In this document: positions 1 to 11,292 of the stretch, piece after piece
Layout: each line of letters begins with the position of its first letter
Numbering within the stretch: the stretch's first letter is position 1
Assembly: GCF_001499675.1 (NCBI RefSeq)
Contig: NZ_LN609302.1
Location: 1,215,896 to 1,279,895, forward strand
Origin: Acetobacter ghanensis
GTDB taxonomy: Bacteria > Pseudomonadota > Alphaproteobacteria > Acetobacterales > Acetobacteraceae
Length of the DNA stretch: 64,000 nucleotides
Direction of reading: 5' to 3'
Made by a program: the position numbers and the translations under genes
The notes under the pieces: model-generated
Told to the model about the DNA's origin: nothing
Databases searched by the model: none
Seen by the model: the letters and a program-made list of their open reading frames with translations, nothing else

Positions 1-444
1 TTGCAGGGGCGAGAAAACCCCGTATCACTCCTGCGTGCCGCAGCGCGTGTTTTAAAAGATGATGGACGCCTGCTTATGGTCGTGCCCAGCCGTCTGGGTG
101 GCCGGGCACGGTTACGCCGAACACCTTTTGCGCGGGATATGGCTTTTACCCGGCCCAAGTTACGGCAAGTTCTGGCTGCTGCCATGCTGCGGGCCGAGCA
201 GTGGGATGAGGCCGTGTTTTTGCCCGTCAGTCAGGCCTGCCGCACGATACGGAGGGGAAGGCAGATGGATATAGCGGGCAAGGTGCTATGCCCCGGAGGC
301 GGAAGTCTGATTCTGGTGGAGGCGGTGCCAGATATGTATTCCGCCCTGCCTTTGTCCGTGCAGCGTAAAAAGGGGTGGCTGTCCCGTATGGGCATGTCCA
401 CGGCAGGTACAGCAGCGACCTCCCGCTCGGGAAAAGCGCTTTAG
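1..444 (+). CDS. Class I SAM-dependent methyltransferase, C-terminal part (cut by window start)
   Basis: Only the last 147 residues are present, with no true start in the window. The visible part begins in the motif RVLKDDGRLLMVVPSR, the strand that follows the SAM-binding core in type 11 methyltransferases. It continues with a TPFA segment and ends in ILVEAVPDMYS, a tail I recognise from the alphaproteobacterial methyltransferase often found next to gloB. The SAM-binding glycine loop lies upstream of the window, so the substrate cannot be judged. It ends 45 bases before the hydrogenase-4-like cluster and need not share its function. Confidence 0.75.
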   Translation: MQGRENPVSLLRAAARVLKDDGRLLMVVPSRLGGRARLRRTPFARDMAFTRPKLRQVLAAAMLRAEQWDEAVFLPVSQACRTIRRGRQMDIAGKVLCPGGGSLILVEAVPDMYSALPLSVQRKKGWLSRMGMSTAGTAATSRSGKAL

Positions 445-488
445 CCAGCACCCAGCAGAGCTGAACAGATTGTATTCAGCCCGCGCTC

Positions 489-2225
489 ATGGTGTTATCC
501 GCCGGTTTTGTGTTCACTGTCTTGGGGCCGGGTTCCATTCTTCTCTCTTCTGTTCTTTGTGGTCTGTTGCTGGTGCTGGTTGCGCTGGGTGTTTTTGCCG
601 TGGTGCCGGATCGTATCCTGCGCGGTGTGGCATTCTGGCGGGCCGAAGTGCTGGTCAGTTTGTGGGCCATGGCAGGAGTGCTGGCCCTGACCGGGGCATC
701 CTTCCGGGTGGAAGGGGAGTTGGGGTGGTTCCCCGTGTTTGGGGCGGATGGTCCATCTTTGCCCATGCTAGCTATTCTGGCCTGCGTAGGTGCACTGGTT
801 GGCCGGGGCCGCGCAGGTGTTGCCTGTGTGCTGGCCTGCTTGGGGGTGTTGGCTCTCTCGCCTCTGGTTTTTGGCCTGTTTACCGGTACGGCCCTTGTTC
901 TGCTGGCAGGGCGGGGTAAGCGCGGGCTGTGCCTGCCATTTGCGGTGCTGCCCGCCTGTATCCCAGCAGATAGCACTTTGTCCGTTCCGTTGCTGGGGGT
1001 CATGGTTCTGCTTATTGGCTGGGCGGTGTCCGTTCAGCGTGGACCGCTTGCGGTTTTGCCCGCCTGCATTGGCCTGTTTCTGCTTGGGCGTCTGCTGGCG
1101 GAAGTGGGAGAACTGCCCCTGTTCCCGCAGGCCGTGCTGTTGCTGTGCGGTGGCGTGGTGGCGTGTGCGGGGCTGGTGCAGGCCATGCGTAGCCCGCAGG
1201 GTACGTCTCTGGTCGCCGGGTTGGCGGCCGGATGGTACGGTATGCTGGTCTTTGCACTGGTGCTTGCTCTTTCTTCCCCTCTGGGCGGGGCAGATACGTT
1301 CCGTACAACGGTCATTCTGGGTATGGGGGCACCGGTGGTGGCGCTGCTGGGTGCGCTCTGGCTGGCCCGACGGTGGGAGCAGGAAGAGGGCGCTGGGCTG
1401 CACGCCCTTTCTGCCAGATGGTTAGCGGGCGTTGTGCTGGCGCAGTGTTCTGCTTTGCCGCCCTGTGGTGGCTTTTCGGTTTTATGGGCCGCGCTGGCAG
1501 GCGGGAATTATTCGGTCGAGGCCACGCAGCCTGTCATGGCTCTGCTTGCAGTTGTGCTGGTGGTGTTCTTTGTCGGTCTGGGTGTGGTGTTCAGTGCTGG
1601 GCTGTTACGTGCGGCCGTGCTGTTTCTGCCTGCTTCTGGTGGGGGAGGTGAAGCAACGCCGGCTATGGTTCTGCCTCTGTGGGTCTGCGCCGTGCTTGCG
1701 AGCGTGCTGGCTTTTTTGCCCGGTATCTGGCTGTTTGTCGCGGATCATCTGGTGGTGGGGCCGCCGTTACCGCCGACGACATGGCATGATGTAACAACCG
1801 TGCATTTTGTTGGGCACGTTGCCCGGTTGACGCCGCTTCTGGTTCTGCTGGGTGTTGCGCTGGCGCTGCTGGGGGTTGGCCTTTTGGTCCGGCTGTTTGG
1901 ATTTGCGCCGTTTGCACCTCCTACCCGTACGGTTGCTGTGTGGCGGCAGGGTGCGCCTGTATGGAGCGGGGCCGAGACCAGCACCGAGGATGACGGTCTG
2001 CCGTTATGGTCTGCATGGAGCAATCTGTTTTCCACACCCGTGGTAGCTACGGTTTTGCGCAGGCCAGAGCGCGGCGGGGCTTTGCTGCGCAGGGGAACTG
2101 TTTTGTGGCGATATGCGCGCAGGTGTCTGTTTGTAAGCGTTGGCTGGTGCGAAGCGCAGGGCATGGTGCTTATTCTGGTTCTTATGGGGGTCGGTCTGCT
2201 TGCGGGACTGTTTGTGGGTAAATGA
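489..2225 (+). CDS. HyfB-like / NuoL-like membrane subunit, first gene of an Ehr-type cluster
   Basis: Protein of 578 residues, almost wholly hydrophobic, with many predicted membrane helices. E. coli HyfB is about 670 residues. The C-terminus (a GTVLWRYARR segment followed by a final helix) has the layout of the HyfB/HycC end. Family members normally carry a buried glutamate and several lysines in the proton path. Here lysine occurs only at residue 144, in a loop, and at the very last position, and I do not see the usual antiporter signature with its conserved lysine. Its stop overlaps the next start (ATGA). It is identified mainly by gene order and overall shape; proton pumping is doubtful. 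Confidence 0.7.
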   Translation: MVLSAGFVFTVLGPGSILLSSVLCGLLLVLVALGVFAVVPDRILRGVAFWRAEVLVSLWAMAGVLALTGASFRVEGELGWFPVFGADGPSLPMLAILACVGALVGRGRAGVACVLACLGVLALSPLVFGLFTGTALVLLAGRGKRGLCLPFAVLPACIPADSTLSVPLLGVMVLLIGWAVSVQRGPLAVLPACIGLFLLGRLLAEVGELPLFPQAVLLLCGGVVACAGLVQAMRSPQGTSLVAGLAAGWYGMLVFALVLALSSPLGGADTFRTTVILGMGAPVVALLGALWLARRWEQEEGAGLHALSARWLAGVVLAQCSALPPCGGFSVLWAALAGGNYSVEATQPVMALLAVVLVVFFVGLGVVFSAGLLRAAVLFLPASGGGGEATPAMVLPLWVCAVLASVLAFLPGIWLFVADHLVVGPPLPPTTWHDVTTVHFVGHVARLTPLLVLLGVALALLGVGLLVRLFGFAPFAPPTRTVAVWRQGAPVWSGAETSTEDDGLPLWSAWSNLFSTPVVATVLRRPERGGALLRRGTVLWRYARRCLFVSVGWCEAQGMVLILVLMGVGLLAGLFVGK

Positions 2226-3234
2226 CGCATTTTCTCACATGGAGTTGGATCCTTGCTTATCTGCCACTCATTGCGCTGCAAACGCTGGCTATGGTGTTTG
2301 CAGCGCCGTGGTTAAGCGGCTTGGTTGGGCGGGTGGCAGGGCGCCTGTCTGGCGTTTCGTCCTTTCCAGTTATGGGACGCTGGCAGGATATATGGCACCA
2401 GTTCCGTCGCCCGCGCCTGCGGTCGGAAGGGGGGCATTAGGGGGCGTTGCGTGTGCAGGCGCACTTGTGCTGGCTGTGCTAGGGTGTGCGCTGGTTCCCG
2501 CCTTTACGCTGGCTGTTCCGGGTTTTCCCGCACCGGGGTTGCTGCTGATCTGCTGTGTGCTGGTCATGGCGTTGGTGTTCCTGCACGTTCCTCTTTTGCT
2601 GAACGGAGGGCTGGGGGCGGAGCAGGGAGCACGTGGCGTGCTGGGTATTCTGCTGTTGCTGCCTGCGCTGGTGCCGGTGTTTTTGCTCGCCGGTGCGCGT
2701 GATTTTTCAGATTTTCTGGCTGTAGTGCATGGGCTTTCTCCCGTAACGGATGGAGCCCCTTTTGTGCTGGCTGGTGTGGCCCTGTTTTTGGTGCCTGCAC
2801 TGGCATGGCCTGCACAGGACAGCAAGGTGGCAGCTTTGGCTGGGCCGAAACGCGCCATGTGGCTGTGGGCTGCAGATTGTGTGCAGATTGCATGGGTTAT
2901 ACTGGCGCTGGATATGGCATGGCCCGGTAGCCTTGCTCTGCCAGATGAAGGCGGCATTGAGCCGTGGTTGACCCAGTGCATGGCCGGGTTTGTCTTTTGG
3001 GGCGGTAAACTGCTGTTGGCCGCTGTTCTGCTGGCGTTGGTCAGGCTAGTGGTGTTGCCCCCCTTGCGGCTGCTGCGTGTTCAGTTGGTCAGCATTTTTT
3101 TGCTCGGAGTGCTTGCCTTGCAGGTTACATGGTCCGTCCACCCCCTTCAGGCGGGGTTGGATGATGGCAGCGTGTCGGCGGCAATGCCCTTGGGGTCACA
3201 GGTTTCCACTACGGGAATGGAGGAGGTGCAATGA
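2222..3234 (+). pseudogene. HyfC-like / NuoH-like membrane subunit, broken by an apparent -1 frameshift in a G run
   Basis: Starts at ATG 2222, overlapping the previous stop. The first 71 residues end in WQDIWHQFRR, which matches the WQDYRDIHKLFKR region of E. coli HyfC, then run into TAG at 2438. The rest of the protein continues in the next frame to 3234. A seventh G in the GGGGGG run at 2429-2434 would give one open frame of 337 residues, close to HyfC. Downstream, the segment GARGVLGILLLLP aligns with HyfC SRELTLGILVEP but has lost both glutamates. The later acidic AEAEQE motif is also absent. The break may be a sequencing error, a real mutation or slippage. Confidence 0.65.
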
Positions 3235-3815
3235 CCCTTGTTGCCATTCTGGTACCGTTGGTGGCGCTTTGCGTTGTTGCGCGTGGGGTGGGGTTTTTGC
3301 TGTTGACTGGCATTGTTACGGCACTTGCCATGCTGGTGGATGGTCTGACCCCTCTACAGGAGGCCGGGGCCGGTCTGGCATTGCTGTTTGCCGTGGTGCC
3401 GCCCGTGTTTTTAATGCGCTACCAGCATGATGGGGCGCATGAGCGGAGTGGTGTTGCCGTCCCATTTTTTGCGCTTGGGTTAATGGTTCTGCTCCTGCTG
3501 GCATGTGAGCGTGCGGGGAGTACGGTTTTTCCGGCCGGGTTGTGTGCCATGGTGGCAGGGCTGGTGGCTGTTGTGTGCCGCCAGAGCATGGTGTGGCAAT
3601 GGGCTGGACTACTGACCTGTATAGAGGGCGTTCTGCTATCTGCCGTATTGGGGCGGCAGCCGGTGGTGCTGGGTGTTACAGCGTTGGCCGGGGTTGTGGT
3701 TCTGCTGCTTGGCGGAATGTGTATTCACCGGATTATGCCGCGGGTCGTAGCCGTACGGGCAGCAGGGCAGCGTGGCAGACGGGCAGGCCCGATTGATGGG
3801 GGAACAGACGCATGA
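3231..3815 (+). CDS. HyfE-like membrane subunit (NuoK-related position)
   Basis: A 194-residue hydrophobic protein with about six predicted membrane helices and an Arg/Gly-rich soluble tail of about 20 residues. HyfE of E. coli is 216 residues. Sequence motifs are weak; the call rests on size, topology and its place between the HyfC-like and HyfF-like genes. Start ATG 3231 overlaps the HyfC-like stop (ATGA), and its own stop overlaps the next start in the same way, suggesting translational coupling and fixed stoichiometry. Confidence 0.6.
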   Translation: MTLVAILVPLVALCVVARGVGFLLLTGIVTALAMLVDGLTPLQEAGAGLALLFAVVPPVFLMRYQHDGAHERSGVAVPFFALGLMVLLLLACERAGSTVFPAGLCAMVAGLVAVVCRQSMVWQWAGLLTCIEGVLLSAVLGRQPVVLGVTALAGVVVLLLGGMCIHRIMPRVVAVRAAGQRGRRAGPIDGGTDA

Positions 3816-4945
3816 GTGCGGGCACGGAAGTGGCCGTCTTTTTGGCCGCTCTTGCGTTTGTATGGCCTTTTGTGGGGGCTGTTGTGGTTGCGGTCCTGCC
3901 TGCTCTACGGAGCCGGGACGTTGCAATATGGATGGCAGGCATTGGTTGCCTGCTCTCGGTCGTGGTGTTCATGTTTCCCACATTAGGGGGAAATGCCAGT
4001 GGTTGGGATGATGACCCGGTGCAAAGGGCTGGCAGGGTCATGCTGGCATTTGGCCTGCTGTTGCTGGTATTGGAAAACGGTATTCTGCCAGACCGCCTGC
4101 TGCGTAGTCTGCCCCATGTGTGTACGGCACTGGCGGGCCTTGCCTGCGTTGCGCCCGAACCGGCTGTGGGGTTGGGTATTCTGGAACTGGCGCTGGCTTG
4201 GGGCGTGTTTGTATTTACGCGCCCTGCCGGACAGGCCAAGACTGGCTGGGGATTAATCCGCACGGGCTCGGTGGGCACAGTGCTTGTGCTCTCTGGCCTG
4301 CTGTTGCCTCAGGGAAGCGTTGTTTCTGGCCTGATGATGGCCTGCGGCCTTGTCATTCTGACCGGGCTGGCCCCGTTTGGTCAGTTCTGGCGGGATGAAC
4401 AGGACAGTTTTCTGTTTCTGCCTTTTGCCGGGGCCTCCATTCTGCTGGCCATGCGTTTACGCGGGCATGGCGGTATGGCGTTTGAGATGGCTCTGGTGGC
4501 TGCCGGGCTTGTCTCGGTCTGGTTAACGGCCTGCGCGGGCCGCTCGCGCGATAGGCAGAGACTTTTCCGTACGTTTCCATCCGCTCTGGCGCTTATGGCG
4601 GTTGGGGTGGAAGCGGATGTTGCAGCTCTTCTCTTTTTGTGTGGTTGGTGCCTTGCCGGAGGGAACCGGAGCGGCCGGGGCTGGGCGGTTAATGTTCTGG
4701 CCTGTTTTCCGCCCGGTGCACCATTTGTGGGCTGCCTGCTCCTGCTGTCGGTTATGACCGACTGGTCATGGCTGGTTGCGGTGCTGACTGTGTGTGGAAT
4801 TCTGGCTGCGGTGCTGCGTGCCGTGCCAGACCGGGAGGCCGCACGCCTGTTCTGGCCGGAGGACATGGCGGGCAGAGTGGCGTGTTCCGTCTTGACGGTC
4901 ATGGGCTTTCTGGTGCCGCTGGCCATGATGCTGGGAGCGTTCTGA
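3812..4945 (+). CDS. HyfF-like / NuoN-like membrane subunit, short form
   Basis: A 377-residue membrane protein, well short of the roughly 525 residues of E. coli HyfF. The segment LTGLAPFGQFWRDEQ (about residues 183-197) resembles the antiporter-family region where a proline-containing loop precedes the second helix bundle. The conserved channel lysines are not evident; the single lysine (AKTGWG, near residue 145) lies in a loop. The start overlaps the upstream stop and its stop TGA overlaps the ATG of the next gene (TGATG). Family membership is inferred mostly from context. Confidence 0.55.
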   Translation: MSAGTEVAVFLAALAFVWPFVGAVVVAVLPALRSRDVAIWMAGIGCLLSVVVFMFPTLGGNASGWDDDPVQRAGRVMLAFGLLLLVLENGILPDRLLRSLPHVCTALAGLACVAPEPAVGLGILELALAWGVFVFTRPAGQAKTGWGLIRTGSVGTVLVLSGLLLPQGSVVSGLMMACGLVILTGLAPFGQFWRDEQDSFLFLPFAGASILLAMRLRGHGGMAFEMALVAAGLVSVWLTACAGRSRDRQRLFRTFPSALALMAVGVEADVAALLFLCGWCLAGGNRSGRGWAVNVLACFPPGAPFVGCLLLLSVMTDWSWLVAVLTVCGILAAVLRAVPDREAARLFWPEDMAGRVACSVLTVMGFLVPLAMMLGAF

Positions 4946-6441
4946 TGGATGTTGTGTCCCTTATCTGCGCGGGCGAACAGACATCTACCCAATGGCGCTT
5001 TCGGCTGGATGAACTGGCATGGCGCGATATGGTGGATATGCTCCGCCAAGATGACCTGCCTTTTGTCGGCCTGTGGTGCGATGGGGCGGATGTCCATGCC
5101 CTGTTTCTGCCCGATGGGCAGCCTCTGGCCGCAACGTTAGGGCTTGAGGGGGGGCGTTATCCCGCTCTTTCTCCCGCGCGGGCTGTATCCAGCCTGTATG
5201 AGCGGGCGATTTATGACCTGTATGGCGCAGAGGCCATGTGGGCGGTTGATGTGCGGTCCCTGCTTGACCACGATGTCTGGTCGGCTTCTGCGCCCCTTTC
5301 GGCAGCGCCGGGGGCGGCAGGGCAGCACAAAGGTCTCATCACCTTTCAACCATCCGACGCCATGCAGGCGGCACAGGGACGGGTGGAAAGTATAGGCCCG
5401 GCAACAGGGAGCAGGGTTCCGCCTTTTTATACGCGGCTTGTTCTGTCCAACGGTCTTGTGGCCTGTGCGGAAACACAAACAGGCTATGCCCACCGGGGCA
5501 TTGCCGCACGTGCACGCAACGCAAGGGTCGAAGATGTTTGCCGCCTGACAAGCCGTGTTGCCGCAGGCAGTTCTGTAGCGCATCAGGTCGCCTTCTGTCA
5601 GGCAGTCGAGAATGCGTGCGGTGAAAATGTGGGGACTGAGGTCTCGCTGCTCCGGGTAGCCCTGCTGGAGATGGAGCGGTTGTTCCACCATTTGTACAGG
5701 CTGGCAGATCTGGCGCGGCTGGCCGGGGCGCATCTGGTCGCATCGCACTGTATGGCGCTGCGTGAAAAACTGGTGGTGGAAGCGGCTCCAGTCACCGGCT
5801 CGCGGTTGCTTATGGATGTTTGCGTACCCGGTGGCGTATCCGTGCGGGAGGCAACCCAGATGGGTGACCTGTGCGCTCGGCTGTACGAGCTTGGTCAGCA
5901 GGCTTATCCACAACTGGTCTTGCTATGGCGGGAATACCCGGGGCTGGCCGCGTTATTGGGCGGCATAGGGCGTGTGCAGGCTGATGAACTGGAACGCGTA
6001 GGGCTGGATGGCCCGGCAGCCCGTGCTGCGGGGTGGGATTGTGATGGCCGACGCATTATTCCGGCTTATGAAGGGCTATGGCGTTACACGTCGGGCAGAA
6101 CAGGTGGCACGGCGGAAGACCGTGCTTTGCTCCTGCTGGACGAAGTGGAAGAAAGCCTGCGGATGCTTGATCTGGCCTCTGCCCGTATTGGGCTAACTGC
6201 TGGTGGAACGGTGCCCTTGTCCATGCAGGATGGAGAAGGGGTGGGTTTGGTGGAAGGGCCGTGGGGTGGCGTGCTGTACTGGGTCCGCCTTGCGCATGGG
6301 CGTGTGGCCGAAGCCTTCTGCCGTAGGCCCGAAATCTCCGCCCTGCTGATGTTTGAGCAGACTCTGAACAACCATGCGGCGGAAGATGCGGCTCTGCTGG
6401 CCTGTTCTCTCGGCATGAATGCCGCAGCGTTGGACGGCTAA
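4945..6441 (+). CDS. HyfG-like large subunit (NuoC-NuoD fusion fold) lacking NiFe ligands
   Basis: 498 residues from ATG 4945. Residues about 1-115 form a NuoC-like domain with the signature LYERAIYDLYG (84-94). Residues about 150 to the end are NuoD/hydrogenase-large-subunit-like, with GYAHRGI (180-186) matching the GYNHRGIE motif of HyfG. In true hydrogenases the next motif holds CxxC; here it reads SRVAAGSS (203-210). The C-terminal DPCxxC motif is also absent, the protein ending LGMNAAALDG. The HxxxH pair used by NuoD at the quinone site is missing too (GPATGSRV at 151-158). So no NiFe chemistry is expected; the role is unknown, probably structural or electron-coupling in an Ehr-type complex. 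Confidence 0.8.
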   Translation: MDVVSLICAGEQTSTQWRFRLDELAWRDMVDMLRQDDLPFVGLWCDGADVHALFLPDGQPLAATLGLEGGRYPALSPARAVSSLYERAIYDLYGAEAMWAVDVRSLLDHDVWSASAPLSAAPGAAGQHKGLITFQPSDAMQAAQGRVESIGPATGSRVPPFYTRLVLSNGLVACAETQTGYAHRGIAARARNARVEDVCRLTSRVAAGSSVAHQVAFCQAVENACGENVGTEVSLLRVALLEMERLFHHLYRLADLARLAGAHLVASHCMALREKLVVEAAPVTGSRLLMDVCVPGGVSVREATQMGDLCARLYELGQQAYPQLVLLWREYPGLAALLGGIGRVQADELERVGLDGPAARAAGWDCDGRRIIPAYEGLWRYTSGRTGGTAEDRALLLLDEVEESLRMLDLASARIGLTAGGTVPLSMQDGEGVGLVEGPWGGVLYWVRLAHGRVAEAFCRRPEISALLMFEQTLNNHAAEDAALLACSLGMNAAALDG

Positions 6442-6479
6442 GGGGCTGGGATGAACAGGTATAAGGCAGGACGGCTGAT

Positions 6480-6977
6480 ATGGGGTTGATCCGCGCGGTC
6501 ATGAATACGGTGTTCTGGAAAGAACGGCAGAAACGCAAACCACTTGGTCCGCGCTGGCCTTTGCTGCTTTTTCATGTGGACACAGGCGGCTGCGGTGGTT
6601 GCGGTATGGAACTACAGGCCATGACCAGCCTGCCTTACGATATGCAAGGGGCTGGCTTTGGGTTTGTCACCTCTCCCCGTGCAGCAGATGTGCTGCTGGT
6701 AACAGGCCCTCTTACACGCACCATGGCGCCGGTCTTGCAGGCGGCATGGGAGGCCATGCCAAACCCCAAAGGGATTATCAGCATAGGTGCCTGTGCGCTG
6801 GATGGTGGCGTGTTTAGCGAAAATTATGCCGTCATGGGGGGGCTGGAGCGCCGGGTATCTGTCGATCTGGCCATTACAGGTTGCCCCCCTAGCCCGCAGG
6901 AAATCCTGAACGGCCTGTGTTCCTTATTAGGAAGTGCAGCGCACGGCGGACAAAAGGAAACGCCCTCAAGGGGATGA
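6480..6977 (+). CDS. HyfI-like / NuoB-like small subunit with an intact 4Fe-4S site
   Basis: 165 residues. The four cysteines expected for the proximal (N2-type) 4Fe-4S cluster are present: C38 and C41 (GGCGGCGMEL), C105 (GACAL) and C135 (ITGCPPSP). This is the spacing seen in HyfI and HycG, where CxxC replaces the CC of NuoB. It lies 38 bases after the HyfG-like gene. This is the only redox centre I can find in the cluster; no polyferredoxin gene (hyfA or hyfH type) is adjacent. Its end overlaps pssA on the other strand by 12 bases. Confidence 0.85.
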   Translation: MGLIRAVMNTVFWKERQKRKPLGPRWPLLLFHVDTGGCGGCGMELQAMTSLPYDMQGAGFGFVTSPRAADVLLVTGPLTRTMAPVLQAAWEAMPNPKGIISIGACALDGGVFSENYAVMGGLERRVSVDLAITGCPPSPQEILNGLCSLLGSAAHGGQKETPSRG

Positions 6978-6986
6978 GGGCGTTTC
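6957..6986. terminator. Bidirectional hairpin containing both convergent stop codons
   Basis: Perfect 12-base stem: GAAACGCCCTCA at 6957-6968, loop of six, TGAGGGCGTTTC at 6975-6986. The stop of the HyfI-like gene (TGA 6975-6977) lies in the right arm, and the stop of pssA (complement of TCA 6966-6968) lies in the left arm. The T tracts are only moderate on both sides. Confidence 0.75.
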
Positions 6987-7856
6987 GATGTCTTCTTTCT
7001 GGAGGTCTTCAGCGGCTCTTTTCAGCTTGAGAAAGCTGCGCCGGCTAAGTGGCAGCAGAACCATGTAAATAATCCCGGCCGCTGCCAGTGCCGCCCAAGG
7101 GTCAGCAACCAGAATAACGGCATAGATGCCGGTTCCCAGCATAAGGGGCAGAACAAACTGGGCTGGCACCTTGAAGTTCTTGAACGACCACACTGGCAGG
7201 GTGGAAACAAGAAGCAGAGCCGTGCTGGTGAGCGTAAAGTCCGGCAGCCACGGCAGGCGGGTCAGGCGGTATAACCAGTCTATACCCAGCTTTTGCGCTT
7301 CAAGTCCCAGGAAGAGAGGGAAAAGTGCCAGACCTGCTCCAGCAGGCGCAGGTACGCCGGTAAAAAAGTTGCTGGCATATTTGGGTTTAAGCTCCTCCCC
7401 ATCCAGATTGGCGTTAAAGCGGGCCAACCGGAGCGCCATGCAAACTGTAAACAGCAGGCAGGGCAGAAAAGCGTAGCGATTGCTGTCCTTAATGGCCCAG
7501 AAATACAGAAGGAATGACGGGGCAACGCCAAAGCACAAAAAGTCGGACAGGCTGTCAAATTCCGCGCCAAAACGCGTAGCGCCGCGCAACATGCGGGCAA
7601 TACGCCCATCCAGCCCATCAATAAAAGCGGAAATAAGCAGCGCAGCCGCAGCAGCCTGAAAGCGCCCTTCAATGGCAAAGCGCATACCGGTCAGGCCTGC
7701 GCACAGCCCCAACATTGTCAGAATATTGGGGATTAGCCGGTTAAAGGAAGGACCACGGCTTTTGTTGCGCACCCGCCGCTTGCGGCGGCGACGGTGCTGG
7801 GGGTCCTTGGGTTCGGTCAGAACTGTCGGGGGGGATGTTGGTGCGGGAAGTGTCAC
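6966..7856 (-). CDS. pssA: CDP-diacylglycerol--serine O-phosphatidyltransferase
   Basis: Makes phosphatidylserine from CDP-diacylglycerol and serine at the inner membrane. 296 residues with a basic N-terminus (RHRRRRKRR type) and several membrane helices. The CDP-alcohol phosphotransferase signature is clear: DGLDGRIAR, then G and two spaced aspartates (FGAEFDSLSD). The start is GTG 7856, eight bases after the psd stop, so the two genes form a psd-pssA operon that makes phosphatidylethanolamine in two steps. The 3' end overlaps the HyfI-like gene. Confidence 0.95.
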   Translation of the reverse strand: MTLPAPTSPPTVLTEPKDPQHRRRRKRRVRNKSRGPSFNRLIPNILTMLGLCAGLTGMRFAIEGRFQAAAAALLISAFIDGLDGRIARMLRGATRFGAEFDSLSDFLCFGVAPSFLLYFWAIKDSNRYAFLPCLLFTVCMALRLARFNANLDGEELKPKYASNFFTGVPAPAGAGLALFPLFLGLEAQKLGIDWLYRLTRLPWLPDFTLTSTALLLVSTLPVWSFKNFKVPAQFVLPLMLGTGIYAVILVADPWAALAAAGIIYMVLLPLSRRSFLKLKRAAEDLQKEDIETPSSP

Positions 7857-7864
7857 GGTCTTGA

Positions 7865-8554
7865 TCAGAGACGCGCCATGACGGTTTCACCGCCCACCAT
7901 GGTCTGGCCAACAGCCACCAGCGGTTCAACGCCCGGTGGCAGGTACAGGTCGGTTCTGGAGCCAAAGCGGATCAGGCCAAAACGTTCACCGGCTTCCACT
8001 TTGGTTCCTTCATCAACAGAGCAGACGATCCGGCGCGCAACCAGCCCGGCAATCTGCACCACCGCCAGCATCCGGCCATCTGGCAGGGTCAGGCTGAGAG
8101 CGTTGCGTTCATTCTGTTCAGACGCCTTGTCCAGGCTGGCATTCAGGAACAGACCGGGGTGGTAGGCAATACGGGTGACCGTGCCTGCGGCGGGCATACG
8201 GTTAACGTGCACGTCCAGCACGGACAGGAACGTTGCAATCCGCCACACCGGAGTTTCATCCATTCCCAGTTCCTTGGGAGGTGCAATTTTTTCTATGGAG
8301 ACAATGTGTCCGTCAGCCGGGGCAACCGCCACATCGTTGCGGGCAGGAGTGACGCGTTCCGGGTCGCGGAAAAAATAAAGACAGAAGCCAAAAAAAGCCA
8401 AGCTTGCATGGCCAAGCAGGCGCAGTTTTGGGCAGCGCAGCTTGCGGCCAAGCAGGTAGCTGACGGCGGAAGCCGCGCCAGATGCCAGCAGAAAGGGCCG
8501 GGCCTCCGGATGGGGGCGTGCTACGACAAGTTTAAGAGATGCAAGTAAAGACAT
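7865..8554 (-). CDS. psd: Phosphatidylserine decarboxylase (short type)
   Basis: Converts phosphatidylserine to phosphatidylethanolamine. 229 residues from ATG 8554, chosen over an upstream in-frame start because AAGGA sits just before it. The short form is typical of alphaproteobacteria. DVHVNR (114-119) is the conserved active-site segment. The self-cleavage site is RFGSR, with Gly198-Ser199; cleavage makes the pyruvoyl group. An N-terminal hydrophobic stretch (about 20-62) would place it on the membrane. First gene of the psd-pssA pair. Confidence 0.95.
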
Positions 8555-8646
8555 AACGCAATCCTTACGCCAAAGGCCGACCAAGGGGAAGCGGCAGAAC
8601 GGGAACACGCGCTCCTATTCTGCCCTTCGTTATCAGAGCGTCTGTG

Positions 8647-11292
8647 TCAGACTATCTCTTTAAGCACATCACGCACGGCGGCAAATGCAGCATCGGCTGC
8701 CTGCCCATCGGGGCCGCCAGCCTGAGCCATGTCGCGGCGGCCACCGCCACCTTTGCCACCCATGGCCACACTGGCCGCCTTGACCAATGCTACGGCATCC
8801 ACCTTTTCGGTCAGGGTTGGGGCAACTGCTGCCACAACGCTCCCTTTGCCATCCACGCAGGAGATCAGCACGACCACATCGGCCTCACCCTGTTTAAGAA
8901 TGGTTTCCGCCAGTCCTTTTAATTCACGCGCGGGGGTTTCACCCACATTGCGTGTGGCCAGACGGGCTGCGCCTACTTTTTCCACCCCTGCTGCGGCAAC
9001 ACTGCCTGTGGCCATCTGGCGTTGCAGGTTGGCAATCTGGCGTTCCATGGCGCGCCGTTCTTCCAGCAACGTTGCCAGACGTTCGGGCGCTTCGGCCACG
9101 CTAACCTTCATCATGCTGGCAATCTGGGCCAGCCTCTGCTCGTTTGTTGCCGTCAGGGCTTCAGCGGCCTTGCCTGCCACGGCCTCAATACGGCGCACCC
9201 CGGCGGAAACACCGTTTTCGGCCACAATGCGGAACTGGCCAATATCCCCCGTGCGGTTCACGTGTGTGCCCCCGCAGAGTTCCATGGACCATGCGCCTTT
9301 GCCATCCTCGGCAGGCCCCATGGCAACAACGCGGACTTCATCGCCATATTTTTCGCCGAACAGGGCTGTTGCCCCTTCAGCAATCGCTTCCTCCGGTGTC
9401 ATCGACCGGGTGGTTACGGCGGCATTCTGGCGGATGCGGTGGTTTACCTCGGCTTCAATATCGGCCAGTTCTTCCGCCGTAATGGGGCGCGGCTGGCTGA
9501 CGTCAAACCGCAGGCGGTCGGGTGTGTTCAGGCTGCCCTTCTGTGCGACATGCGCACCCAGTCGGCGGCGCATGGCCTCATGCAGCAGGTGCGTGGCGGA
9601 ATGGTGCGCCCGTATGGCCGAGCGGCGGTCATGGTCCACTGTGGCTGTAACAGCCATGCCGGGTTTGACCGTGCCTTCGGTCACTGTGCCGTAATGCACA
9701 ATCAGGTCCCCAGCTTTTTTCTGGGTATCACTAATCGCGATTTTCAGCCCTTTGGCGGTCAGAAAACCCGTATCTCCGGCCTGTCCACCGCTTTCGCCAT
9801 AGAAGGGGGTCTGGTTCAGCAGAATGGCAACTTCCTGCCCGACGGTCGCTTCTGGCAGAAAAGCATTGCCTGCAATAACAGCCTGCACCTCACCATCGGC
9901 CTGCTCGGTTGAATAACCAAGGAACTCGGAGGCACCGAACTTGTCCCGGGCTTCAAACCAAACGGTTTCTACCGCGGTATCGCCCGAGCCGGTCCATGCT
10001 GCGCGGGCACGCTGGCGTTGGATGGTCATGGCTTCTTCAAAGCCAGTGACATCCACATCGTGGCCACTGCCGCGCAGGGCGTCCTGCGTTAGATCCAGCG
10101 GGAAGCCAAACGTGTCGTACAGACGGAAGGCCACATCGCCGGGAAGTGGCGCGCCAGAAGCCAGTTTGCTTTTTTCGTCCTCCAGCAGGTGGAGGCCACG
10201 GTCGAGCATGGCTTTGAAGCGTTCTTCTTCACCACGCATGGTTTCACGGATCAGCGCTTCGCCGTGAACCAGTTCTGGGTAAGCTGTGCCCATCTGCTGG
10301 ATAAGGGCGGGAAGCAGTTTGTAAAAAACGGGGTCTTTGGTGCCCATCATGTGCAGGTGGCGCATGGCGCGGCGCATAATCCGGCGCAGGACGTAACCAC
10401 GACCATCTTTGGCGGGCAGAACGCCATCGGCAATCAGGAAGGCGGTGGAGCGCAGGTGGTCAGCCACAACGCGGTGGCTGGCCTTGAACGGTCCATCCAC
10501 GGCCTGATGGGTAAGCTCCGACGATGCATTGATGAGCGATACAAACGTGTCTGTATCGTAGTTGTCACGCTTGCCCTGCATAATGGCGGCAAAACGTTCC
10601 AGACCCATACCCGTATCAATGGACGGGCGCGGCAGGGGAGAGCGGGTGCCCGGCGGGTCTTCGAAATACTGCATGAACACGAGGTTCCAGATTTCGACAA
10701 ACCGATCCCCGTCTTCATCTGGGGAGCCGGGAGGGCCACCGGGGACATCCGGTCCGTGGTCATAAAAAATTTCGGAGCATGGACCGCAGGGGCCGGTATC
10801 ACCCATCCGCCAGAAGTTGTCGGAGGTGGGAATACGGATAATGCGGCTGTCATCCAGCCCGGCTATGGAGCGCCACAGGCTGGCGGCGTCCTCATCCTCG
10901 GCATAAACGGTAACAAGCAGCTTGTCTTTGGGCAGGCCAAAGCCTTTGGTAATCAGGTTCCACGCCAGTTCAATGGCCTGCGGCTTGAAATAATCCCCAA
11001 AGGAGAAATTCCCCATCATTTCAAAGAATGTATGGTGCCGGGCTGTATAGCCTACGTTGTCCAGATCGTTATGCTTGCCCCCAGCGCGTACAACTTTCTG
11101 TGCCGTTGTGGCGCGTGAGTAAGGGCGTGTTTCCTGCCCTGTAAACACGTTTTTGAACTGGACCATCCCTGCGTTTGTAAACAGCAGGGTTGGGTCGTTG
11201 CTTGGCACAAGCGACGACGAGGGAACGATCTGATGGCCCTTGCTGGCAAAATAGTCCAGAAAAGCGGTACGGATTTCATTTGTTGTCAGCAT
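8647..11292 (-). CDS. alaS: Alanyl-tRNA synthetase
   Basis: Charges tRNA-Ala in the cytoplasm. 881 residues from ATG 11292 ([15 protein letters not shown]), the usual family start; a longer in-frame start at 11346 is not needed. The class II catalytic core carries TNAGMVQFK and [11 protein letters not shown]. The editing domain has [11 protein letters not shown] (zinc-binding HxxxH) and [10 protein letters not shown]. The C-terminal DHHA1-like part ends in [16 protein letters not shown]. Full length, no damage seen. Confidence 0.98.

What the first reader, a model, noticed from the sequence alone, without database searches (positions are those of the whole stretch)
489..6977. A hydrogenase-4-like membrane complex stripped of its catalytic and many pumping residues
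Six overlapping genes keep the hyfB-C-E-F-G-I order, yet the large subunit lacks NiFe ligands. The two antiporter-like subunits have almost no lysine (two in 578 residues and one in 377), and the HyfC-like subunit has lost the SRE, VEP and AEAEQE acidic positions. No ferredoxin-like subunit is present. Ehr complexes (hydrogenase-related, no NiFe site) are known, but retention of an assembled set without obvious proton-path residues would be a distinct variant. Overlapping starts and open frames argue against simple decay.
Basis: partly seen in the sequence, partly recalled or inferred. Interest (0 to 1): 0.78.

Follow-up and report, generated by a model that had tools for sequence, protein, structure and literature searches.

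The report
Hydrogenase-like complex without antiporter lysines
Acetic acid bacteria keep a six-gene relative of hydrogenase-4 and complex I whose membrane arm has lost the lysines that help move protons in its relatives, yet selection still preserves it, so it may do a different, still unknown job.

The parts
489..2225 (+). hyfB-like: antiporter-like subunit, 578 aa, 2 Lys
   Evidence: AlphaFold model pLDDT 83.1, best match E. coli FHL HycC 7z0s_C; relatives give graded PF00361 scores
2222..2440 (+). hyfC-like, first part (frame ends at a stop codon in this assembly)
   Evidence: the homologous N-terminus is continuous with the rest in relatives
2422..3234 (+). hyfC-like, remainder in another frame; carries D-x5-W-x5-D
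3231..3815 (+). hyfE-like: small membrane subunit, 194 aa, 0 Lys
3812..4945 (+). hyfF-like: second antiporter-like subunit, 377 aa, 1 Lys; 123 of 377 positions invariant in 21 Acetobacter sequences
   Evidence: AlphaFold model pLDDT 80.7, NuoL/M/N fold
4945..6441 (+). hyfG-like: large subunit, 498 aa, no NiFe ligands
6480..6977 (+). hyfI-like: small subunit, 165 aa, four [4Fe-4S] cysteines kept

Best explanation
The operon encodes an Ehr complex of the Hyf type, probably derived from a duplicated canonical Ehr, that has given up the lysine/glutamate relay of its antiporter-like subunits. SHOWN by sequence or model: gene order, the HyfG/HyfI pair, four cluster cysteines, antiporter fold of HyfB and HyfF, loss of the antiporter Lys, of several HyfC acidic positions and of the first His of the beta1-beta2 loop, purifying selection. 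INFERRED: the six products assemble; the membrane arm serves as anchor and scaffold and does not pump; HyfI carries one [4Fe-4S] cluster next to a preserved cavity in HyfG (L1-motif Arg and His, 'HRG') that passes electrons to, or senses, an unknown small molecule or quinone. In this strain the complex may be defective if the hyfC interruption is real and not an assembly error.
Against: No expression, assembly or activity data. E. coli FHL tolerates several of the same substitutions (PMC9474812, passages), so missing residues do not prove missing transport. Conserved charges remain or are new in AAB rows: HyfB D87 (34 of 42), R201 and R374 (41 of 42 each); HyfF R150 (42 of 44), R95 (36 of 44); HyfC acid at L126 position 210 (45 of 45), D219 and D231 (43 of 45 each), Lys/Arg 263 (45 of 45); HyfE acid one residue beyond the canonical Glu (33 of 45). 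Three further HyfC acidic positions are still acidic in 12-16 of 45 rows, and HyfF TM5 Glu in 15 of 43. Some loci have up to 25 Lys in the arm. hyfC is interrupted in the window and HyfG is broken in 3 of 37 genus genomes (G005, G010, G029, all drafts). HyfB and HyfF alignments across AAB rest on 17-27% identity in part.
Confidence: 0.5

Rival explanations
1. The complex still moves protons, through a rebuilt path: the shifted HyfE acid, the HyfC acids (210, 219, 231) with its kept Lys/Arg 263, and HyfF R150 / HyfB D87, R201, R374 replace the old relay.
For: Conserved charges listed. D-x5-W-x5-D in HyfC of 43 of 46 parsed loci and 15 of 30 scanned others; 0 of 5 canonical and 0 of 6 intermediates. 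FHL itself uses a non-standard path (PMC9474812, passages).
Against: All antiporter lysines are gone. HyfB R201 and HyfC 263 are equally conserved in canonical copies, so they are not replacements. The HyfC motif is absent in its strict form from 14 of 76 loci with a HyfC to judge (3 parsed, 11 scanned; 4 more had no candidate frame).
Confidence: 0.25
2. The complex is a membrane scaffold or regulator without redox chemistry; the cluster is structural.
For: No NiFe site, no electron-input gene seen in the locus, loss of the beta1-beta2 His; two loci have Ser for the last Cys.
Against: Cluster cysteines and HyfG cavity residues are among the most conserved features.
Confidence: 0.17
3. A decaying relic of Ehr.
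For: Strong divergence and shrinkage of membrane subunits (Gluconobacter HyfB about 440-455 aa); hyfC interrupted here; frame breaks in HyfG of G005, G010, G029.
Against: dN/dS means 0.02-0.22 in all subunits (no control gene was run); HyfF 123 of 377 invariant; presence in 37 of 37 same-genus genomes; intact near-identical hyfC. The broken copies are in draft assemblies.
Confidence: 0.05

Closest known systems
[quoted passage not shown]
   Same: Group 4 hydrogenase-type large and small subunits without Ni and Fe ligands, with antiporter-fold subunits (definition read in passages of PMC6349859)
   Different: Antiporter-like subunits have lost the Lys/Glu relay and the NuoH-like subunit several acids; PF00361 no longer recognises them in the window
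Canonical Hyf-type Ehr copies L070, L108, L112, L115, L118
   Same: Same gene order; no ferredoxin gene seen in L070
   Different: Keep the checked antiporter Lys/Glu and both loop His (5 of 5)
E. coli hydrogenase-4 / formate hydrogenlyase
   Same: HyfG, HyfI and HyfB are closest by sequence or structure to HycE, HycG, HycC
   Different: No NiFe site; no FdhF-, HycB- or HycF-like gene seen in the locus
Archaeal membrane-bound sulfane reductase (MBS)
   Different: No input subunit seen in the locus; substrate untested
Respiratory complex I
   Same: 20-kDa- and 49-kDa-type subunits; NuoL/M/N-type folds
   Different: No NADH module in the locus; a HyfG match is present in 15 genomes without any PF00361 protein

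Membership tests
[quoted passage not shown]
   best PDB matches are FHL subunits 5 and 7
Ehr | No Ni/Fe-coordinating residues | tested here: met
   no Cys at the L1 positions in the window and a single Cys in its C-terminal motif; among 73 AAB rows a Cys stands at the first L1 position in 1 and at the second in 10
Ehr | Mrp antiporter-like membrane subunits | tested here: met
   By fold and graded relatives; by sequence family alone the window's HyfB and HyfF give no match
Ehr | Charge translocation coupled to redox chemistry (suspected for the family) | not testable with these tools
   Antiporter Lys missing, other charges conserved; no activity data
Hydrogenase-4 / formate hydrogenlyase | [NiFe] active-site cysteines | tested here: not met
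Hydrogenase-4 / formate hydrogenlyase | Ferredoxin-type subunits (HyfA/HyfH) in the operon | tested here: not met
   none among the window ORFs at 1-10000, by inspection
Antiporter-type proton pump (NuoL/M/N kind) | TM5 Glu and TM7/TM8/TM12 Lys | tested here: not met
   Lys 0 of 37 (HyfB) and 0 of 43 (HyfF; TM7, TM12); HyfB TM5 column is a gap in 37 of 37; HyfF TM5 Glu kept in 15 of 43, window included
Respiratory complex I | Quinone-site His on the beta1-beta2 loop of the 49-kDa-type subunit | tested here: inconclusive
   first loop His 0 of 73; second loop His 38 of 73, window has Tyr. Which of them corresponds to the complex I residue is inferred from the alignments
Respiratory complex I | N2-type [4Fe-4S] cysteine set in the small subunit | tested here: met
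   73 of 76 loci, in the CxxC arrangement of hydrogenases (that NuoB has adjacent Cys is recalled)
MBS | Sulfane sulfur reduction with ferredoxin input (recalled) | not tested
   No input subunit seen; substrate needs biochemistry

The most novel reading that the evidence does not exclude
A duplicated Ehr lost its antiporter lysine relay step by step and was then fixed in acetic acid bacteria as a non-pumping member of the complex I superfamily with a new function, marked in some genera by a wholly lysine-free membrane arm and in most loci by a new Asp-Trp-Asp helix in HyfC; it persists even where complex I is gone.
Probability: 0.42. Interest if true: 0.78.

Novelty: new variant of a known kind. 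Interest (0 to 1): 0.6.

Why it matters
[quoted passage not shown] A clade that keeps the architecture without the antiporter lysines, with intermediates still living in sister genomes beside the canonical copy, is a natural experiment on what those residues are for and on what Ehr complexes do, which still needs experimental testing (PMC6349859, passages). The hosts include vinegar and cellulose producers, some of which can be grown and studied genetically (general knowledge).

Tried and rejected
Decay: rejected for the family by dN/dS and conservation (no control gene was run for dN/dS); it stays possible for this strain's hyfC. Antiporter lysines at shifted positions: rejected for the 17 of 46 loci with 0-3 lysines in the whole arm; the window's HyfB has Lys only in a loop (143) and at the last residue (578). 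Lysine-poor proteome as the cause: not sufficient, since complex I and antiporter proteins of 10 genomes have 0.8-2.5% Lys. Complex I accessory: made unlikely by 15 of 24 genomes with no PF00361 protein (I chose those 24 as small genomes of the family, and looked at the membrane genes of only one of the 15, G308). Direct profile comparison of Acetobacter HyfB, HyfE and HyfF with five canonical sequences gave no significant match (hhalign), HyfC did (E 1e-9); intermediates and models were used instead. First choice of complex I control ORFs took wrong frames for many loci; repeated with a hydrophobicity rule (L199 there is probably still wrong).

Rows dropped or labelled: 'AAB-type' in the HyfB/HyfF table means every row that is neither canonical (5) nor L116, L113, L107, L111, L117, L109; L106 counts as AAB-type there but as an intermediate for HyfC/HyfE, and L180 and L195 count as AAB there. 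HyfB alignment has no L042, L046, L048, nor loci with no HyfB hit (among them L037, L055, L058, L060, L104, L105, L110, L113, L114). HyfF has no L037, L055, L110 nor loci with no HyfF hit. HyfC/HyfE tables leave out L193. HyfG table leaves out L180, L195 and rows under 400 aa (73 rows left, window included). The operon parser handled 46 of 76 named loci; the other 30 are cut by contig ends, broken, or mostly Gluconobacter and Saccharibacter with genes shorter than its limits. By my count 39 genomes in the table list two or more HyfG matches; 5 were examined with both copies. The tree does not separate duplication from transfer.

Literature: ten searches in an open-licence library; no listing showed a description of this complex in acetic acid bacteria. 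Listings only, except passages of PMC6349859 and PMC9474812. Marreiros et al. 2013, which I recall as naming Ehr, was seen only as a reference entry.
Full report
WHAT IS THERE. On the + strand the window carries hyfB-like 489-2225, hyfC-like 2222-3234 (interrupted), hyfE-like 3231-3815, hyfF-like 3812-4945, hyfG-like 4945-6441 and hyfI-like 6480-6977. pssA and psd follow on the other strand. HyfG matches the 49-kDa family of complex I (4e-14) and, among solved structures, best E. coli formate hydrogenlyase subunit 5; HyfI matches the 20-kDa family (3e-27) and FHL subunit 7. The four membrane proteins match nothing over a cut-off in Pfam or NCBIfam, and PF00361 finds only three other proteins in the genome.

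CORRECTIONS. hyfC is not open here: the frame from 2222 meets a stop at 2438-2440 and the rest of the protein lies in another frame. A 98% identical, intact 337-aa copy exists (P0060), and most fetched relatives have one frame of about 320-350 codons. So this is a strain-level or assembly-level event, not a property of the family. hyfI starts 38 bases after the end of hyfG. HyfF E125 aligns with the TM5 glutamate.

DISTRIBUTION. All 37 same-genus genomes searched, the window's own included, have a HyfG relative (the others 35-87% identical); in three drafts (G005, G010, G029) it is broken by frame shifts or a stop. In the family 252 of 299 genomes have one at E <= 1e-18 (218 of 250 good-quality genomes); these counts include canonical Ehr. 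Named records: 76 loci in Acetobacter, Komagataeibacter, Novacetimonas, Gluconacetobacter, Gluconobacter, Saccharibacter and a few others. pssA (opposite strand) and psd lie in the fetched stretch of 73 of 76 named loci; pssA directly adjoins the set in 72 and lies 5.5 kb away in L152; the three without are on short contigs or at contig ends. In Gluconobacter oxydans the set is smaller (HyfB about 450 aa) but keeps its order.

TWO KINDS IN ONE FAMILY. L070 (from another family of the class) and L108, L112, L115, L118 are canonical: HyfB about 670 aa, HyfF about 480 aa, with the antiporter motifs. Five genomes examined hold both a canonical and a diverged copy (G136, G143, G159, G206, G347). 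In a HyfG tree of 56 rows six canonical copies, L070 and L110 among them, form one clade (100/99), and the diverged partner of each genome lies outside it, 5 of 5. This fits an old duplication; transfer is not excluded. The Acetobacter genomes and the six Gluconacetobacter-type (g66), six Komagataeibacter-type (g84), four Novacetimonas-type (g97) and six Gluconobacter-type (g78) genomes list one match each at E <= 1e-18 (a few Acetobacter drafts list one gene in two pieces; genus names by contig matches to or by similarity).

STEPWISE LOSS. PF00361 scores for HyfB/HyfF: canonical 173-185 bits; G136 diverged 133/119; G206 88/42; G143 87/28; G347 57 for HyfB only; G201, G133, G338 29, 25 and 23 for HyfB only; no match in the sets of G182, G032 and the window. 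At the aligned positions L116 (G136) keeps HyfB TM7 and TM8 Lys but not TM12; L107 and L111 have lost all three; AAB-type rows keep 0 of 37 (HyfB; one has Arg at TM7) and 0 of 43 (HyfF). HyfC has no acid at the SRE and AEP positions in 45 of 45 rows and is gapped at two further acidic positions in 45 of 45; three more are still acidic in 12-16 of 45. HyfE has no Glu at the canonical place in 45 of 45, but an Asp or Glu one residue further in 33. HyfG has lost the first His of the beta1-beta2 loop in 73 of 73 rows against 5 of 5 kept; the second is kept in 38 of 73.

LYSINE-FREE ARMS. In 10 of 46 parsed loci (Komagataeibacter, Novacetimonas, Gluconacetobacter) the four membrane subunits, 1,441-1,539 residues together, hold no lysine; five more hold one or two; the other 31 hold 3-25. 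Complex I and antiporter proteins of 10 genomes, including three whose Ehr arm is lysine-free (G133, G182, G201), hold 5-14 each. Whether lysine is avoided actively or drifted to arginine after losing its role is open.

SELECTION. Mean dN/dS (Nei-Gojobori) in five groups of close relatives: HyfB 0.05-0.17, HyfC 0.03-0.17, HyfE 0.03-0.22, HyfF 0.02-0.09, HyfG 0.04-0.12, HyfI 0.03-0.07; dS is near or above 1 in some pairs, so values are approximate, and no control gene was run. HyfF is the most conserved membrane subunit: 123 of 377 positions invariant in 21 Acetobacter sequences.

WHAT IS KEPT OR GAINED. HyfI has the four cysteines in 73 of 76 named loci; one is cut by the contig end, two (L180, L195) have Ser for the last. 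HyfG keeps E86, R87, H183, R204, R245, R287, D291 and R393 in 73 of 73 rows; H213, at the place of the hydrogenase L1 His (motif recalled), is kept in 72 of 73 but not in the five canonical rows. HyfC shows D-x5-W-x5-D in 43 of 46 parsed loci and 15 of 30 scanned others (4 of those had no frame to judge), 0 of 5 canonical, 0 of 6 intermediates; the window has it. Further conserved charges: HyfC acid at L126 position 210 (45 of 45) and Lys/Arg 263 (45 of 45, also in canonical), HyfF R150 (42 of 44) and R95 (36 of 44), HyfB R201 and R374 (41 of 42), D87 (34 of 42).

HOW IT MAY WORK. The canonical copy already lacks a NiFe site, and L070 has no ferredoxin gene in its locus, so the only redox centre predicted is one [4Fe-4S] cluster in HyfI beside a conserved HyfG cavity. 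With the antiporter relay gone, I favour a complex that uses the membrane arm as anchor and exchanges electrons with, or senses, a small molecule, without pumping (0.5). A rebuilt proton path (0.25) and a non-redox scaffold (0.17) remain. Caution: E. coli FHL tolerates several of the same substitutions and has Leu for the Lys of one Glu/Lys pair (PMC9474812, passages). Fifteen of 24 small genomes have no PF00361 protein at all, so the complex cannot depend on complex I there.

PLACE AMONG KNOWN THINGS. It meets the Ehr definition given in PMC6349859 and fails the NiFe test of hydrogenase-4. It is a new variant of a known kind. I found no description of it in the searches named under Tried and rejected, which cover open-licence papers only.

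Noticed in passing
window 2222-3234: hyfC frame is interrupted near a run of G in this assembly; the protein collection holds both a 331-aa reading of the interrupted form (P0059, 3 members) and an intact 98% identical one (P0060, 13 members).
   Followed up: partly
L041, L043, L047, L048, L051 (and L130, L132, L135, L136, L138, L143): HyfE reads as about 390-435 aa in A. malorum, A. cerevisiae, A. orleanensis, A. farinalis, A. garciniae and relatives: an extra C-terminal part of about 200 residues of unknown origin.
   Followed up: no
L186 4174-9919 and other Gluconobacter loci: Shrunken version of the set in Gluconobacter (HyfB about 440-455 aa), still followed by pssA and psd.
   Followed up: partly
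G114, G190, G239, G308, G336, G092, G177, G229, G269, G121, G195, G161, G217, G260, G130: Fifteen small Acetobacteraceae genomes (99-100% complete) without any PF00361 protein, hence without complex I or Mrp-type antiporters by this test.
   Followed up: partly
L180 and L195: HyfI has Ser in place of the last cluster cysteine.
   Followed up: no
L049 / L141, L055 / L145, L058: Frame breaks in several genes of the set in draft genomes (A. okinawensis JCM 25146, A. papayae JCM 25143, G010); real loss or poor assembly not settled.
   Followed up: no
L070 9692-10435: A gene whose product looks like a spermidine-synthase-type methyltransferase fold (by eye, no search) follows the canonical Ehr set directly.
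   Followed up: no
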